Shown here: one piece after another, positions 1-13,503 of the stretch
Numbering within the stretch: position 1 is the first letter of the stretch
Layout: each line of letters opens with the position of its first letter
NCBI GenBank assembly: GCA_949422915.1
Contig: CASPLF010000009.1
Location: 1-32,244, forward strand
Direction of reading: 5' to 3'
Length of the DNA stretch: 32,244 nucleotides
Origin: an uncultured Mycoplasmatales bacterium
Lineage (GTDB): Bacteria; Bacillota_I; Bacilli_A; Mycoplasmatales; Mycoplasmoidaceae
Notes under the pieces: model-generated
Database searches by the model: none
What the model saw: the letters and a program-made list of their open reading frames with translations, nothing else
What the model was told of the DNA's origin: nothing
Translations under genes and position numbers: made by a program

Positions 1-2315
1 GAGAATATTTGATCTTCACGATATTTTGTAACTTGTCATTCAGAGAACTTTAACATATACAAAGAATAAAGAGAATTAGAAATATATATATTTCCATAAG
101 CTGAAATGTTAGGAAGACATGTTTCAGAAATATTGGTAACAATATTTATTTGGTTTGCATCCCAATTGAAATAAATCTTATCAAAAGCACCAGTATCTTT
201 AAAGGCATCAGTTCCAATTTTATAAACAGTAGCTGGAATATAAAAACTACCTGATAAACTTTTACATCCTTCAAAAGCACGAGCACCAATACCTACTAAG
301 TTATTGGAATCATCTATATCAACGTTTGATAATTTAACACACCCACTAAAAGCATCATCTTCTATGGTTTGTAATTTTGAATGTTCTAAAGTAGAAATAG
401 ATGTAATATTTGTCCCAGAAAACGAACGATTACCTATGCTTGTAATGGTGTTTGGGAATAATATATCACCAGTAATGTTTGTGCAATTATAAAAAAGATC
501 ATCTCCTATGTTTGTTAATTTATATTCAATACCATTATGAATAGCTGTTGGTTTAAATCCAGAAATTTGACCAACAATAGAAGTGTTTGAAATTTGGGCA
601 ATAGAGTAGGTTTGTGAGATAGGGTCAAATTCACATTTAGCAGTTACCGATTTAAAAGTAGTTTGAATATCAATAACATCTTCGATGTTAAATTCTTCTT
701 CTTCAAAAGAGAGAATATGATCAACATAATCAAGAGATCATTTATTAAAAAAATTAATATATGATTCATAGTTGTTTAATGGAACAGAAATATATGAAGA
801 AGGAATTTCATCATAATTTAAAACTGGGAAAGAATATGAATTACCAATTTCTAATGCATCTAATTGTGAATTATCTCAATTAAATGAAATAATAGTGAAT
901 TTACCTGAATTTTTAAAAGCATCATTTCCAATTTTATTTAAAGAAGATGGTATATCAAGTTTGCCAGCAAGATTAGAACAGTTTAAAAATGCAGATTCAC
1001 CAATTTCCAATAAATTTGAACAATTAGAAAAATCAATACTAGTGATTTTCATAGGAGAATTAGATAAACTTGAAGAAAAAGAATTATTACCAATTCTTTC
1101 TAAATATTTTGGAAAAACAATTTGTCCGTTAATATCTCTTTGATTTTCAAAGGCTTGATCTGCAATTTCTGTTATTTTATATTCTTCACCATCAATAAAG
1201 AAACTATTTTTGAACATCAAATCAAAAACAGTAATTTTTTTGTTAAGTTTTAATATTTTTGCTGTTTTCTGTGAATTAGAATCATTAATTTCAATGTCTA
1301 CATTGCAATCATCAGTTATAGAGTTAGAAACAAGTGTAGACAATTTACAAACATAGTCAGGACCAGAAAAATAGTCATACAAATTTTGGTAGGTTGTTAT
1401 GTTGTTTTTTTCAAAGAAAAGTTTGTATTCATATTTTGTACTATTTGGAACAGAGATAACTGGATTAGTAACAGTTGTGTCTAATATTGGTAAAGCGTTA
1501 GAGCCATCAATTGATAATGTTTTTAATTGAACTGAGTTTCAATTAAATGATATATTTGAAAAACCTTTAATATCTTTAAAAGCATCTGCTCCAATAACAT
1601 CAATGCTTTTTTCAAATGAAACATTACCAGAAAGATTTTTACAATTAGAAAATGCACCTGCTCCAATGTATTCAAGTGTTGAAATATCTTTACTTGGGAA
1701 AGTTACACCTTCAATACCTGAACCAGCAAAAGCTTTTGAACCAATTTTTTTAAGATAGTGATCTGTATAAAGGTTTAATGTTCCGTCCATATTTGGACAA
1801 TTATCAAAAGCAGAGTTTCCGATTTCCACAATGTTTTCTAAATTATTTAAGAAAAAATCACATCTTAAATTACTAAAAGCGTAATCACCAATGTATTTAA
1901 TTTTATTAGTAAAATTGATTGTTCCAACTAAATGTGAAGCAAGGTTGTTTCCATACGTTCCTGTACCGCTAAAACAAGAGTTTCCTATAGAAGTAATAGT
2001 GTATGTTGCTCCTTCATAAAGAAACGTTTGTTTAAACTGCATATTTAATGCGTTTTCGGTTAAATTACAATTTTTTAAAGAATCTATTGATGCAGTAAGG
2101 TTTGTTTTATCTATAGTACAACATGCATCAATTTGATTAAATGAAGGAGTTGCAATTTGATTATCTAAACTAGCTAAATTAAATAATTTAGTTTCTATTG
2201 CTTCAGTTGCATTAGTACTACTTTGTAAAGTATTAGATATAAAAGGAGCAGAAGAAAACAAAGGAATTCCGCAGCAAACAGTTAATAATTTAAAGAAAGT
2301 TTTATTTTTAACCAT
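1..2315 (-). CDS. BspA-like leucine-rich-repeat surface protein, C-terminus truncated by the window edge
   Basis: ORFs 1539..2315 and 876..1382 share one minus frame, with UGA=Trp joins at 1536 and 873, and the frame stays open to position 1. N-terminal signal-like segment MVKNKTFFKLLTVCCGIPLFSSAP. Repeated BspA/LRR_5 motifs such as ITSIGNSCFSGTG, YIGDYAFSNL, LEYIGAGAFSNCKNLSG, IGNRSFSGTNITSI. Confidence 0.85.
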
Positions 2316-4740
2316 GTTTTTTTACCTTCCTTTTTTTTGATAACGATAAAAATATAGGGATGAAAATGATGATTGGTGTAACAAATGAAACAGGGAAAAT
2401 AACATAGTCTCAGTTAAAGGTTTTTTTATTATCAGTATCAGGTAAAGGAGATGGTTCAGTTCCATCGTAAATAAATTCTGAAGGTATTCTTTCTTGTAAG
2501 TTATTTTTAGTAAAAAATTGAATGTATTGGTTCTTTGTACCATATGGAACAGAAACAAAAGGATGTTCATCATCAATGTAATCAAGAACAGGAAAAGAAT
2601 CGATATTTTCAATTTTGATGTCATTAAATTGGATATCATAAGCATCTCAATCTAAAGAGATTTTATTAATTTTTTGCGTTTGCTTAAAAGCATCTTTACC
2701 TATAAAAATTAATTGTTTTGGGAATGTTAAAGAATCGTTTTTGTTTTTAAAAAGATTAATGCAATCTTCAAAAGCAGATTGTCCTATGACAGACAAATAA
2801 TGTAAATTACCAAAGTCAATTGATTCAAGACTATTGCAATTAAAAAAACATTTTTGAGAAAGAGTGTTTAATAAACAATTATTTTTAAATTCCACACGAG
2901 AAATATTAGTTTTTGCAAAAGCATTTGCACCTATAAAAATAATAGATGAAGGAAGAGACAAAACACCAGAAATGTTATAAGAATTAAAGCAGTTATCAGC
3001 AACGCTGGTTAATTTATAAGAAACATTGTCAATTTTAATGTCTTCAAAAAATGATAGATTATTAAAATTATCTAATGTTTCATCGATTGACGCAAGTTGA
3101 CACTCATGAGTTAAATTGTTAGTTACACATATAGCATTAGGGTCAACTGAATTCGAACTTTCAAAATTACAAATTGTAGAAAGAGGAACAGTCTTGTATG
3201 AATCTTCAACATAGTCAGATGGCATATATTTAGTAATTTTTTTATCAATAAAATACTGTATGTAATTTTGAACATTTGCAGGAGGAACATAAATTTGACC
3301 ATTAGAAGTAATGTTCTTAGTCAAAGAAGGTAAAGAATTTGCGCCTTTTGCATCTAATCTTTGTAAATTTTCGTTTGTTCAATTAAAATGAATATATTTT
3401 GAAGAACCAGCATTAAGAAAGCAATCAATTCCTAAAAAAGATACAGATTTAGGAATTTCTAAATCGTCATTCGATATATTTGAACAATCCTTAAATGCAA
3501 AATCAGATATATTAGTTAAGTTTGTTGATTTTGAGAAATCAATAGACTGAACATTTGAACAACCAGAAAAAGAAGAAGGACCAATTTTTTTGATGTATTT
3601 TCCAAATGTTATTTTTCCAGAAATATTTTTATTGTCTTGAAAACAACCTTCATCAATACAAGTAATTTTTTTTCCATATATTTCATCTAAAAATTCTAAA
3701 TTAGTTGTTGAAACAGAGGGTGAAACACTTGCAATATGTAATCCACCATCTTCATGGTCATACTCTAAACTAACGTCGCCATCAGTTGTTACGGGATTTG
3801 ACACAAGTGAAGACATTTTTACTGAATAATTTTCACAAATTATGTTTTCTTCTTGATATTTAAATCCAATTTTTTTGAAAAAGCTAATGTATTGTTCTAT
3901 GCCTGATGGAATATAAATTAAAGATTCATTATAAAGGGTTGGTAAAGAAAAACTTATAGAAGGAATTTCTTCTGGTTGTCAAGGAAACATTATCGAAGGG
4001 ACACAAATTCCGCTTTCAGTACCTGAAAAAGCATCTTGAGAAATTCTTTTAATATTTTTTGGCACTTTAAACGTGTTTGTTAGATTTGCATTGTTATAAA
4101 AAGCATAACCATCAATGTAAGGCAAATTTTCAGGTAAAGATAGAGTTTTAAGGTTGTGTGTATTATCGTTATTGGTGTCTGAAAATGCTCTTGTACCAAT
4201 TCTTTTTAGATCTTGGCAATTTGACAAATTTATATCAGTTAAACCAGTACATCCACTAAAAGCTAAGTCTAAAATTTGTTGAAGCTCTAAACAATCTTCA
4301 AAATTAATTGAAGAAATATATGGTTGATTCATAAAAGCATTCTTATTGACTAGTTGTAAATGAGAGGGCAATGACAAAGAACCGAACATATGGACTGTAT
4401 CAGGTTGAAAAGCATTTGCTCCAATTTGAGTAATTGTGTAAGATTTGGAATTATAGTTAATTGTGTCATTGATTACTAAGTCTTTAATTTGAATTTGTAT
4501 TCCATAATCTTCACAGTAATTTAACGAAACAGTTGAATCTGAAAGAATTTCAAAAGAAAAACTAACAGCTCCAGAGACTTGACTAGCTGATGCAACTTCG
4601 GAAAATGGTAACAAAAATGAATTTGTTGAAGGGGAAGATATAACGTTTTCATTGTTATTTGAAAATGGTAAAAATATTCCCTGTGAACAAAATAGACAGA
4701 AAAAGCATTTTAGAAATTTTCTTTGTAGTATGTGTAGCAT
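2308..4740 (-). CDS. BspA-like leucine-rich-repeat surface protein with signal-like N-terminus and C-terminal TM anchor (~810 aa)
   Basis: ORFs 3979..4740, 3379..3816 and 2647..3324 are in the same frame and joined by UGA=Trp. LRR_5 motifs (ITQIGANAFQPD, LKRIGTRAFSDT, IKKIGPSSFSGCSN, LSVIGQSAFEDC). C-terminus FPVSFVTPIIIFIPIFLSLSKKRKVKKHG* is a TM segment plus basic tail. The stop overlaps the start of the next gene by 8 bp. Confidence 0.85.
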
Positions 4741-4744
4741 TAGA

Positions 4745-4754
4745 TATAATTATA
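4745..4754. promoter_or_regulatory. Candidate shared divergent -10 region (palindrome TATAATTATA)
   Basis: Self-complementary TATAATTATA in the 44-bp gap between the divergent starts at 4740 (-) and 4785 (+). It gives a TATAAT on each strand. Confidence 0.4.
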
Positions 4755-4784
4755 AAAATATTTTATATTTCAATAAGGAAAAAC

Positions 4785-7700
4785 ATGATTAGATCAAAAG
4801 CTAAGATAATTTATTCAACACTACTATCATCTGTTTTAGTTTCTACATTAGCGACTTCTACTTTATCGTCTTGTTGAAATAATAAAAATGTTAGTACATT
4901 TGTTGCTGATGACCACACATGGATTGATGTTGATTCTCAAAAAAATCAGATGATTAATGGGAATGAACATAAATCTAGAGTGCTTTATGAATCTTCTCCA
5001 CAAATTAGGAGTATGTATTCAGATGAGGAAAGTTTTGTTGAAGAACAAAAACAAGAATACCAATCTAATCTTGAATTAAAAGTTGAAACATACAAAAATC
5101 AAAAAGTTCGTGATTCAGAAGAAGTATACGAAATGTTGAGTGACTTATCAATTTCTGAAGATAACCCCACAATCGATTGAAGATCAACTAATAAAAATTT
5201 TGATTTAGTTAAAGATTCTATTTTATCTAATATTAATTCAATTCCTGGTTTGTCTGATGCAAAAAGATCTGAAATTTTTAATGAAACAAATATAGAACTA
5301 AATGAATTATTGTTAGAAGCACAAAATTCAAAATTATGTGAAGAAGAATCTGATTTATTTTTAACTGAAGGAATTAAAAAACTTATTCAAGAAAAACTTC
5401 ATGAAAAAGTTGAAAAAGCTCTTGCTTTTAACGAATTAGATGGTCTTTTAACAAACTCAGATTTTAAAATTTTATCAAATGCTATTAATCCAGAAGACTC
5501 AACAGACACAACATCATTGCACAAACTATATAGTGAATTGAATTCTTCATCAAATTTAAAAGCACAAACTGAAGATTCTCTTTTACCATTATTATTTCAA
5601 TATCGAAATTTACCATTGTCTAAGTCAACAATTTCAGGATATGAATTAGGTTTCGATGTCATAGATATGACATGGACTGATTGTGTTACAGCAAATATGA
5701 CGCTTGCTTTTTATTTATCAGATATTAATACTCATGAAAAATTAGCATCATACAAGTTTGAAGACATTTCTATTATTGACAATAAAAATGGTCAAATTGA
5801 AGCTGCGAATCAATATGTTGATTTAATAAATTTCACTTCACTTTCCAAAGAAAATCTTCCTGAATATTCTGCTTTTTTAAATTCTTCGAAACAATTTGAT
5901 CCATATTCAACAAATGCTTCATCAAATGAATATTTTATCTCTCAAACAAATTTAAATTCTTTAGGCGATATATCTATTTCAGAAACTGTTTCAAATTTAG
6001 ATACAAGTGCGTACGATGGAGCTATTGTAGATGGTGTTTTTGCTATTGGTGCTATAGTTGATTTTAATGAATCTGTATGTAATGTTTCAAAACAAATCAG
6101 TTTAAAATTATGTCTTTATAATCCGAATGTAGATTTACCAAAAGATTCTGTTTTATCAATAAAACCTAACACAATAAATTTAACTCTTAATGACGATTCT
6201 GATGATCAAGCAAAAGAAGTTGCTGTTAGTCAGCTTGAAATGACAGAGATTCAAGAAGGTTTTGCTTCATTTCTTGATATGTATAAATATTTAAATGATT
6301 CTTCTGTTAAGAAGCTACATGAAGAATCATCTGATAATGCTAATACATTGTCAACTCTTCATAAGGTAAAGTTTTGAATGGATATTGTTGTTTCTGCTAG
6401 TTCATTAATTCTTGATATTGTTACTCATAGTTTTCTATTTGCTATTGTAGATTTAGGTCTTGGTGCATTTGATTGTTGATTAACTAACAAAATAAAGAAA
6501 CAATTTTTTGAACAAAAATTGTTATATGATAAAAATCTGTCAAATTATAAGGAAGCTAAAAAATCAGACATTTACAAAGAAGTTGATCATTTACTTAATG
6601 ATAAATCTAAAAATTTTCAACAAGTTTTAAGAGAATTAACAAATGAATTAAATGAATTTACTACCCCATCAGATGAATTTGAAGGTGCTCGAAATCTAAT
6701 AAATGCAAACAAATTAATTCAAGAGTTTAAGGAAAAATATCATTTATTATCACCAGAAGAAGTTTTAAAAAAAGTTAAAGAAAAAACATCAAAATTTACT
6801 AGTATTGCAACTCATGCAATAGACGCATATACAGTTATCAATTCTAAAGTAAAAATTAATGCAATATCTTCTGCTACTCAATTTAATACAAAGATGAAGC
6901 AACTTGATTCAATGGTTAGTGGTTTTGATGATATTATTGTATGCTTGGCTGGTGGCACTTATAATCCATTAAAATCTTCTGATGTATTTAAAGGTTGATT
7001 TGGTAATGGGATTCAAAACGTTTCATTTATTTTAGGAAATGATGCATCGCAAACTTTATTTAAAGATTATGGTTTGTTGGTTTCCCCAAAAGAAATTAGA
7101 GATGCTTTTTCGTTAGACTGCAAAGTTATCGAAACAGCAAAAGATTTAAATCCGACGTTTAGAGAAACATTATTAACATATGCTGAAGGTTCTTTTCTAG
7201 GATTTGATAGTATGTGAGGTAAATTGTATAATGATTCTTCACAACTTATTAAAGAAACATGACGTGATTGAAACCAAATACTTCCAGCAAAATATTTAAT
7301 TGATGATACAGGTGTTTGTCAAACAGTAGCATTCGATATGTCTCGAAGAGGTATTAATTGTTTTGAATCTGATCAATTTTTACAACTTTATAAACAACAA
7401 ATGATAAATAATGTAAAGGCATCTGATACGATTGCTAGTACTCAAAGAGCTATTATTGCTACACAACCAGCTGAAATACTAAACAATTTATCACCAGAAC
7501 AATTTTTTAATAAATATTTTCCTAATCTTTCTAATTTAGACACAGCTATACCTGAAAAATATATTAGTAGAATAAAAGGTCTATCATCAGCTGATAAGGA
7601 ATTATTTAGAACTGAAATGATGATTTCTCTTCCTGGTTTTTATAATGACTGTCAGTATTCACGAAGCAGTACTATATTGCCTACAATTGCAAGCAACGGA

Positions 7701-8324
7701 GAGAACACTGTTCATTCGATTCCTGATTATGTTTTTAATGTTGATGAATTTAAACAAAATGTTAATAATTTTAACAATTCAACTAGAACTAGAGATTTAT
7801 CTGTGCAAAATTATTTAAATAAAAATGGAGTAAGTGCAAAAGCAAATCAAATATATATAGAAACTGCTTTTGATAAATCTCTAGATATTAATGAGGTAAC
7901 TAGAGTTAGTGTTAAACAATATAAAGAATCGACATCTACTACTTTTAAGAGAAAGTTTGCTAAAATTGTTTCAACTAGAGATTGTGCCTATAATGTTAAT
8001 GTAACAATTTTCTCTGAAGCTGACAAACAACTTATTGAAAGAATTCTTAATGATTCTACAATGCCTAAAGATTTAAAAGCAAAAAATCTTGCTGAAATTG
8101 CAGAAAGATACACTACTAAATATGCTGTTGTTGATTCAGGATTGTGTGCAGCTGATACCACACATTTAGATGCAATTCATATTGCTGAAACTACTACTAC
8201 TAATCTGGGTTGATTAAAAGTAACAAAAGCATTAATTTTTGTTTCTGTTGTTGGTTCAGTTATATTTATGTTTTATTCTCAAGCAGTAGATTTTATAACT
8301 GACATTTTCAATTTTTCAAAATAA
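4785..8324 (+). CDS. Large uncharacterised predicted lipoprotein / surface protein (~1179 aa) with C-terminal TM segment
   Basis: ORF fragments 4950, 5250, 6519 and 7338 are all in the same frame and joined by UGA=Trp. Start ATG 4785 is preceded by AAGGAA. N-terminus MIRSKAKIIYSTLLSSVLVSTLATSTLSSC-W has a lipobox-like LSSC. C-terminus contains ALIFVSVVGSVIFMFYS. No family recognised. Confidence 0.8.
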
Positions 8325-11531: not shown

Positions 11532-11945
11532 ATGAGCAGCGATTTAACAGGATTAATAATTTCTACGATTCTTGGTTGAATCGCTTTTTCATTTGGAATT
11601 GCTGGTTGCATTCCACAATCTGTTAGAGTATTAAAAACTAAAGACACTCAATCTATATCATTATCAATGTATGTTTTATATTGTATTGGTTGTGTAGTAT
11701 GAGTTATATGATCTATTGGTTATACATGCGAAGCATTAAGTAATTTAAGTGAAGGTCTATTTGCACATGATGTTACTAAAACAATTATTTGATTTGCAAA
11801 TTTACCAACATTATTTCTTAATGTTATTTGTTTAGCATTAGCTTCCATCATTTTAACTATTAAATTAATTAATTTTTTAGGAAGTAAAAAACTAAAAGTA
11901 TCAGAAAGAGACTTTGTTGAACAACGTTGAAAGAAACATGGGTAA
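11532..11945 (+). CDS. SemiSWEET/PQ-loop family transporter (copy 1, ~137 aa)
   Basis: UGA-recoded translation MSSDLTGLIISTILGWIAFSFGIAGCIPQSVRVLKTKDTQSISLSMYVLYCIGCVVWVIWSIG... shows a PQ-loop repeat and three hydrophobic segments. Confidence 0.85.
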
Positions 11946-12285
11946 TAGTTGATCTTGAGTATTTTATATAAATATGGTAGCTACAATAATTTGAATTATT
12001 GTATTGCTTCCTCAGTTTATAAAAACAATTACTACGAGAGACACATATTCAATTTCAATTTGAATGTATTTGTTTTATCCAATGTCTAATGTAATGTGGA
12101 TATCATATGAAATATCAATGATAATATCTGAGCAATCATTAAGCATTATCTTCATGCTAGTAAACGATATAGTTGGATTTATATTATCTTCAACCATTTT
12201 ATCAGTTAAATTATGGAATGTTTACCATGCTAAAAAAGTTGGTATGACAGAAGTAAACTACTATAATAAATACATAAAAAAATAG
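11938..12285 (+). CDS. SemiSWEET/PQ-loop family transporter (copy 2, ~115 aa)
   Basis: MGNSWSWVFYINMVATIIWIIVLLPQFIKTITTRDTYSISIWMYLFYPMSNVMWISYEI... keeps the PQ motif and TxDTxSIS. Start overlaps the end of copy 1 by 8 bp. Confidence 0.82.
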
Positions 12286-12298
12286 AAAGGAAAAAAAT

Positions 12299-12694
12299 AT
12301 GAGCGCTGCTAATATATTAACATGATCTGCATTTGCATTCTCTTTATTGGGTGCGGCAATCGCGATCTTCTGCTACATGCCTGGAGCACTAAAAACTCTT
12401 AAAACAAACGACACAAGAGGTATCTCTGAATGAATGTTTGGATTAACATGCTTTGGATGTTTAATTTGAGTAATTTACTCAATCTTAATGCTTTCAAGCT
12501 TTGGAGCATCTGGTGGAGTTAACAGTGAAAACTGATCAGGTTTCGTTGGTGGTTTTGCAACATTGATTTCAAACTTAGGCTTAGGTAGTTTTGGTGGAGT
12601 TATCTTATACAAAAAGATTAAAAACCTAATCGCTTCTAAAAAAGAAGGTTTGACAGAAGATCGATGATACAAGAAGCACTATGAAACTAAGTAA
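12299..12694 (+). CDS. SemiSWEET/PQ-loop family transporter (copy 3, ~131 aa)
   Basis: MSAANILTWSAFAFSLLGAAIAIFCYMPGALKTLKTNDTRGISEWMFGLTCFGCLIWVIYSI... has the same fold signature, with PQ replaced by PG. RBS-like AGAAAGG upstream. Confidence 0.82.
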
Positions 12695-13436
12695 GATATT
12701 ATCTATATCTTTAATAGGAGGAGGGTTCGCTTCTCCTATTTTTTTACAAACTTCTTGTTCTTGTAGTTCTTCTAAAGAAGAACCATGAGTTCCATATTTA
12801 GGTGAAGAAATATATAAATGAGATGTAGATACAACAACTAAAATCTCTTCATTAACTAATGAAGCAAAGACAAATATTGAACAATATATCACTGAACAAT
12901 ACAATTGTTTTGCTATCCCTAATCGTGTAACCGAAATTGCAGGTCAAGTATTTTCTGATCACGTTGGACAACTTAACTATTTACCAAAAAATATTAAATA
13001 TTTAAGTTTGGGTGATCCAAACAGTGATGAAGTTTCAAAGTGTTCTAGTGTTGCAGCATATAATTTTGAATACAATAGAAATTTAATTTCTGTAAACTTT
13101 TCAAAAGCAGAAAATTTACAAGTACTTGGTGCATATTTATTTAGAGATTGTTCAAACATTCAATCAATAACATTGCCAGGTAGTATAAAGAAAATTAATA
13201 ACGGTTGTTTTTATGGTTGCAAAAACCTTAAATCAATAACATTTAACAATTTAAATGAAATTATTAAATGAACTTTTGATGATTCAACATATAAAGCTCA
13301 ATTTGATGGATTACCTGAACACGGCACAATTTATATTCGTGGAACCGCTGATATACAAGAATTTAAAAACATGTTATTAGAAACATGTGACGGAGCACAA
13401 GTATTTAATACTTGAACATTTAAAAAGATAAAATAA
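12681..13436 (+). CDS. BspA-like LRR lipoprotein (~251 aa)
   Basis: MKLSKILSISLIGGGFASPIFLQTSC has a lipobox. LRR_5-type repeats (LQVLGAYLFRDCSNIQSITLPGSIKKINNGCFYGCKNLKSITF). Overlaps SemiSWEET copy 3 by 14 bp. Confidence 0.85.
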
Positions 13437-13441
13437 AAAAC

Positions 13442-13457
13442 CAGCCATAATTGGCTG
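13442..13457 (+). terminator. Hairpin terminator candidate
   Basis: CAGCCA-TAAT-TGGCTG perfect stem followed by ATTTTCT, just after the stop at 13436. Confidence 0.65.
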
Positions 13458-13503
13458 ATTTTCTAAATTGAAACATTAAATGTTGTGATTTATATTTCAA
13501 TTT

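What the first reader, a model, noticed from the sequence alone, without database searches (positions are those of the whole stretch)
1..4740. Two adjacent BspA-like LRR proteins built from ~200-245-aa super-modules marked by a terminal [F/L/P]-x-W
Within both minus-strand proteins the same order recurs. An LRR_5 block ends in AFK...I-x-F-N-W. A linker of the form LPxLx...Y/SVPxxxxxxYIxFF follows, then a beta-like segment such as LSTLVSNSITDDCNVDIEIN or MSSLVSNPVTTDGDVSLEYD. Boundary Trp codons lie at about 160, 873, 1536, 2644, 3376 and 3976, giving spacings of roughly 600-730 bp within each protein. Most of these boundary Trp codons are UGA. BspA-like LRR proteins are established adhesin-type surface proteins in oral bacteria and trichomonads. 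The spacer domain may be an undescribed repeat partner suited to module shuffling and antigenic variation.
Basis: partly seen in the sequence, partly recalled or inferred. Interest (0 to 1): 0.6.

Follow-up and report, generated by a model that had tools for sequence, protein, structure and literature searches.

The report
Triple-headed leucine-rich surface protein pair
A tiny uncultured wall-less bacterium makes two neighbouring surface proteins, each predicted to be three complete leucine-rich-repeat domains strung in a row, probably to grip host or microbial surfaces; they belong to a known kind with an unusual layout, and show no sign of module shuffling.

Summary
The recurring order is real. 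The window is an entire 32,244-bp contig of an uncultured Mycoplasmataceae genome (TGA=Trp). P2 (2308-4740, minus, complete) and P1 (3-2315, minus, cut off by the contig end) each carry three LRR_5 (BspA-type) blocks. Every block ends at a Trp followed by the same roughly 50-aa element (W..P..[IV]P..Y..F), which recurs significantly between module positions. The beta segment recurs weakly by sequence but clearly in structure prediction. AlphaFold2 models one module at pLDDT 91/pTM 0.87: multi-strand N-cap, LRR stack, helix-strand-helix C-cap. The 'linker' and 'beta segment' thus appear to be end caps of complete BspA-type domains, not an exotic spacer. An orthologous overlapping gene pair in another species keeps the same module order, and modules mostly pair by position in a tree. 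Modules are not near-identical at DNA level. 'Module shuffling / antigenic variation' is not supported for this pair; divergence, LRR-number change and whole-locus gain or loss are (a sister genome lacks the locus). UGA at the boundary Trp is ordinary (95% of Trp codons elsewhere are TGA). Most likely role, inferred: membrane-anchored, three-domain adhesin pair. New variant of a known kind.

The parts
2308..4740 (-). P2: complete 810-aa protein; signal-peptide-like N-terminus, three capped LRR_5 modules, C-terminal TM helix and basic tail
4657..4740 (-). P2 N-terminal hydrophobic signal-like segment
   Evidence: hydropathy; low pLDDT 1-39
4432..4620 (-). P2 module 1 N-cap (beta strands)
3982..4431 (-). 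P2 module 1 LRR block
3844..3981 (-). P2 module 1 C-cap, boundary Trp 3979-3981 (TGA)
3664..3843 (-). P2 module 2 N-cap
3382..3663 (-). P2 module 2 LRR block
3244..3381 (-). P2 module 2 C-cap, boundary Trp 3379-3381 (TGA)
3010..3198 (-). P2 module 3 N-cap
2650..3009 (-). P2 module 3 LRR block
2512..2649 (-). P2 module 3 C-cap, boundary Trp 2647-2649 (TGA)
2311..2403 (-). P2 C-terminal TM helix and basic tail KKRKVKKHG
   Evidence: hydropathy 2.54; helix 784-800 (low pLDDT)
2325..2331 (-). Shine-Dalgarno-like AGGAAGG inside the P2 3' end, upstream of the P1 ATG; P2 stop and P1 start overlap by 8 nt (2308-2315)
   Evidence: sequence; a 14-nt overlap is present in the G032 ortholog pair
3..2315 (-). 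P1: at least 771 aa, signal-like N-terminus, three capped LRR_5 modules; 3' end beyond the contig
1995..2195 (-). P1 module 1 N-cap
   Evidence: alignment to the modelled module
1542..1994 (-). P1 module 1 LRR block
1404..1541 (-). P1 module 1 C-cap, boundary Trp 1539-1541 (TGA)
1173..1358 (-). P1 module 2 N-cap (in the single-module model)
879..1172 (-). P1 module 2 LRR block
741..878 (-). P1 module 2 C-cap, boundary Trp 876-878 (TGA)
516..698 (-). P1 module 3 N-cap
165..515 (-). P1 module 3 LRR block
27..164 (-). P1 module 3 C-cap, boundary Trp 162-164 (TGG)

Best explanation
P2 and P1 are a translationally coupled pair of exported BspA-type (LRR_5/TpLRR) surface proteins. Each is a chain of three separately capped LRR domains: beta N-cap, a few LRR coils, helix-strand-helix C-cap marked by W..P..Y. 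P2 is anchored in the membrane by a C-terminal TM helix with a basic tail. The caps close each short solenoid, so the protein would present three binding surfaces on a jointed rod. The most likely job is adhesion to or recognition of eukaryotic (animal mucosa or protist) or bacterial surfaces. The pair changes by point divergence, change of LRR number and whole-locus gain or loss, not by exchanging modules. Shown: reading frames, modules, cap recurrence, conserved order and overlap, presence/absence. Predicted: the fold. Inferred: export, coupling, adhesion.
For: LRR_5 at 2e-50 and 1e-45. C-cap recurrence. Single-module AF2 pLDDT 90.9/pTM 0.87 and full P2 pLDDT 80/pTM 0.47 with three N-cap/LRR/C-cap units. 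Foldseek and HMMER top hits are solved BspA-type LRR proteins 4gt6, 4fs7, 4cp6, 4oju, 6mlx. Ortholog pair in G032 with the same order, three modules each and overlapping genes; modules mostly pair by position. Sister genome G060 (rpoB 99%) has no match to P1 above generic LRR level and has other genes at this place. A third gene of the genome (contig C7, 1146 aa, TM anchor) carries the same cap class, E = 7e-8. LRR_5 matched in 36 of 36 genomes of the genus. BspA-like proteins with a C-terminal TM are expanded in the trichomonad symbiont Ca. M. girerdii: 26 proteins, 23 with TM (PMC4206474), 24 of them expressed in symbiosis (PMC9239101).
Against: No ligand, export or expression data. The P1 C-terminus is unknown. 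N-cap recurrence is weak by sequence. Foldseek TM-scores over a whole module are modest (TMq 0.27-0.45), so cap-for-cap structural identity with the solved proteins is not shown. Alignments for AF2 were shallow (4 and 12 sequences).
Confidence: 0.72

Rival explanations
1. Antigenic-variation system: the cap segments are recombination points at which LRR modules are shuffled between genes.
For: The genome has 49 LRR_5 matches; other LRR lipoprotein loci share long DNA stretches, e.g. 181 bp at 98% near contig ends and 1262 bp at 94%. P1 and its ortholog both run off contig ends near the same point, as at assembly-breaking repeats.
Against: P1/P2 have no DNA match of 60 bp or more to the other LRR loci fetched; within-pair DNA repeats are short and 64-81%; modules mostly group by position with the ortholog pair; the first 200 bp of the contig are unique in the assembly.
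Confidence: 0.08
2. The two proteins form a hetero-oligomer in which TM-anchored P2 holds P1, acting as one receptor rather than two independent adhesins.
For: Overlapping genes kept in both species; P1 and P2 both retained across deep divergence (42% and 33% identity); only P2 and its ortholog have a seen TM anchor.
Against: The P1 C-terminus lies beyond the contig and may have its own TM helix; no complex was modelled.
Confidence: 0.3
3. Nutrient-capture (for example haem-binding) LRR receptors rather than adhesins, as in streptococcal HupY/LrrG.
For: Weak match of P2 to NCBIfam HupY, 53 bits, E 1e-14.
Against: Curated cut-off is 1250 bits; the match lies over LRRs and reflects the shared repeat. 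No recognisable transport gene adjoins the pair in the window.
Confidence: 0.05
4. A single irregular BspA solenoid; the apparent modules are just degenerate repeats.
For: LRR proteins often have irregular coils (general knowledge).
Against: Invariant W/P/Y in 12 of 12 modules; predicted helix-strand-helix and multi-strand sheet between blocks at high pLDDT.
Confidence: 0.04

Closest known systems
BspA-like / TpLRR (Pfam LRR_5, PF13306) surface proteins, incl. the Ca. Mycoplasma girerdii BspA family
   Same: LRR_5 repeats, C-terminal TM anchor, expanded family in Mycoplasmataceae (PMC4206474)
   Different: three separately capped domains per protein; a lineage-specific W..P..Y C-cap found only in this pair and its one ortholog pair at the thresholds used; overlapping gene pair
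Solved BspA-type LRR proteins 4gt6 (F. prausnitzii), 4fs7 (B. ovatus), 4cp6 (pneumococcal PcpA), 4oju, 6mlx (TpLRR)
   Same: LRR coil type and the strand leading into the first LRR
   Different: shorter chains with one LRR domain as far as the matches show; C-cap only partly aligned (4gt6, to about 12 residues past the Trp)
Second LRR family of the same genome (lipoprotein type; cap ITWNAWNG..GGTVTVTNP..ELLQYL..GLPxSW)
   Same: tandem capped LRR_5 modules, Trp near the C-cap start
   Different: caps not detectably related (hhalign E 0.2); lipoprotein-like, no TM anchor seen; copies similar at DNA level

Membership tests
BspA-like (LRR_5, PF13306) | LRR_5 score above the curated cut-off | tested here: met
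   170 and 155 bits against cut-off 27.7; all 12 modules match LRR_5
BspA-like (LRR_5, PF13306) | Surface export and anchoring | tested here: inconclusive
   Hydrophobic N-termini in P1 and P2 and a C-terminal TM with basic tail in P2 and its ortholog; P1 end missing; no signal-peptide predictor run
BspA-like (LRR_5, PF13306) | Fold like solved BspA-type LRR proteins | tested here: met
   Top Foldseek hits, E 1e-10 (P2) and 1e-5 (one module), are all BspA-type; global TM-scores modest
BspA-like adhesin | Binds host or microbial surface | not testable with these tools
   needs binding assays
Module-shuffling antigenic variation system | Near-identical cassettes or mosaic modules between loci | tested here: not met
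   no DNA match of 60 bp or more to the other LRR loci fetched; order conserved with ortholog
HupY/LrrG haem-binding adhesin | NCBIfam equivalog score | tested here: not met
   53 bits against 1250

The most novel reading that the evidence does not exclude
The paired C-cap/N-cap junction is an undescribed, lineage-specific inter-solenoid connector that does more than cap: it sets a fixed geometry of three LRR heads or mediates P1-P2 pairing, making a multi-headed receptor for a particular (possibly protist) partner.
Probability: 0.15. Interest if true: 0.45.

Novelty: new variant of a known kind. Interest (0 to 1): 0.3.

Why it matters
BspA-like families are among the large surface-protein families of some reduced mycoplasma genomes and are suspected of mediating contact with trichomonads and host mucosa. 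Recognising the unit as a complete capped domain gives clean borders for expression and binding tests, and shows that this pair evolves by vertical divergence and gene gain or loss rather than by module shuffling.

Tried and rejected
Special role of UGA at boundaries: rejected, TGA is 79 of 83 Trp codons in the other window genes. Module shuffling: tested by tree, DNA self-comparison and genome comparison, not supported. Finding the rest of P1: the first 200 bp of the contig occur nowhere else in the assembly; the sister genome lacks the gene; the G032 ortholog also ends at its contig end. The C-cap profile in about 700 genomes of the order and class found only the 12 known copies plus three marginal matches (E 4e-4 to 9e-4), judged chance and not followed up. 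The N-cap fold on its own was not searched (no prediction jobs left).

Full report
What the window is. The window is contig C9, complete at 32,244 bp, of a 724-kb, 56-contig genome of about 91% completeness. Long frames open only with TGA read as Trp and a tRNA with anticodon TCA is present. By RpoB the nearest named records are uncultured Mycoplasmataceae/Mycoplasmatota MAGs: 99% (L084, here called G060), then 80-81% (L082, L083), then MAGs at about 65%. Two adjacent minus-strand genes occupy 3-4740: P2 (810 aa, complete) and P1 (771 aa read, cut by the contig end).

Checking the repeat. P1 and P2 align end to end at 33% identity, three modules against three. The 12 modules (six here, six from the ortholog pair described below) share invariant W, P and Y in the segment after the LRR block. 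With the LRRs excluded, this segment recurs between positions 1, 2 and 3 at profile-profile E-values of 1e-11, 1e-9 and 8e-11, while the beta segment before each LRR block recurs only weakly (2e-5, 0.03, 0.003). Pairwise shuffles agree: median z 5.6 for the first, 1.0 for the second. One control (ccap1 against ncap2) is void because those two slices overlap in sequence.

Structure. AlphaFold2 on P2 with a four-sequence alignment gives pLDDT 80 and pTM 0.47. Each of the three units reads: several beta strands, LRR strands, then a short helix right after the Trp, a strand (around [IV]xVP) and a longer helix (around YIxFF). One P1 module with 12 sequences gives pLDDT 90.9 and pTM 0.87 with the same layout. 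The much lower pTM of the whole chain fits freely jointed domains, but this is inference; no aligned-error map was available. Foldseek's best hits are BspA-type LRR structures, and the module profile aligns with the strand leading into the first LRR in 4fs7, 4gt6 and PcpA 4cp6, and partly past the end of the LRRs in 4gt6. The C-cap sequence itself is lineage-specific: at the thresholds used a profile finds only the six copies here and six in G032 among roughly 700 genomes of the order and class, plus three marginal matches. A more distant version occurs in a third gene of this genome (contig C7, two modules, TM anchor; hhalign E 7e-8).

Orthologs and change. Genome G032 (the genome of locus L083) carries the same pair, 900 aa and at least 798 aa, again with overlapping genes (14 nt; 8 nt here). 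Identities are 42% (P1) and 33% (P2). In the module tree P1m1, P1m2 and P1m3 pair with the same position in the ortholog with strong support, P2m2 and P2m3 with moderate support, and P2m1 with its counterpart is unresolved because of long branches. The ortholog of P2 is about 75 aa longer in the LRR block of module 1. G060, 91-96% identical in most of the flanking DNA, has other genes in place of P1/P2 and, in about 600 kb, no match to P1 beyond generic LRR level. The neighbours of the pair in G032 are different genes. So the pair is kept as a unit but gained or lost between close relatives, and no exchange of modules is visible: no DNA match of 60 bp or more with other fetched LRR loci and only short, imperfect DNA repeats within the pair.

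How it most likely works. Shown: frames, modules, caps, order, overlap, presence/absence. Predicted: fold. Inferred: both proteins are exported (hydrophobic N-termini), P2 is held by its C-terminal TM helix and basic tail, and P1 is translated by coupling to P2 (Shine-Dalgarno-like AGGAAGG within the P2 end). Short capped solenoids in a chain would give several binding faces at set distances from the membrane, as suits an adhesin. BspA-like proteins of Ca. M. girerdii, a symbiont of Trichomonas, form a 26-member family, 23 with a C-terminal TM (PMC4206474), and 24 of 26 are expressed in the symbiosis (PMC9239101); a role in recognition between mycoplasma and protist has been proposed (PMC10557491). 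Whether the lineage of this window meets protists is unknown.

Verdict. It is a new variant of a known kind, of modest interest.

Noticed in passing
window 12681-13436 (+): A separate LRR_5 lipoprotein-like gene whose whole extent (about 12691-13502) is missing in sister genome G060, where the flanks join with only about 13 bp between the aligned blocks: a clean single-gene gain or loss.
   Followed up: partly
window 4698-8324; L174:12330-13152: The 1179-1221-aa protein of no Pfam family next to the pair has, in G060, a second 77%-identical copy of its 3' end directly upstream, where P1/P2 sit in the window.
   Followed up: no
L032:4735-4915 and L040:4516-4696; L038:3855-5116 and L048:338-1599: In the other LRR family of this genome, different loci share 181 bp at 98% (the L040 copy at a contig end) and 1262 bp at 94%; recombination between these lipoprotein-type genes looks possible.
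   Followed up: partly
window 1-30; L081:9700-9740: P1 and its ortholog in G032 both run off the contig end shortly after module 3, which may mean a sequence just downstream that breaks assemblies.
   Followed up: partly
window 11532-12694 (+): Three consecutive PQ-loop (SemiSWEET-like) genes in tandem, overlapping or nearly so.
   Followed up: no
genus of the window (36 genomes): LRR_5 matches range from 2 to 89 per genome across genomes of 0.5-1.3 Mb: very uneven expansion within one genus.
   Followed up: no
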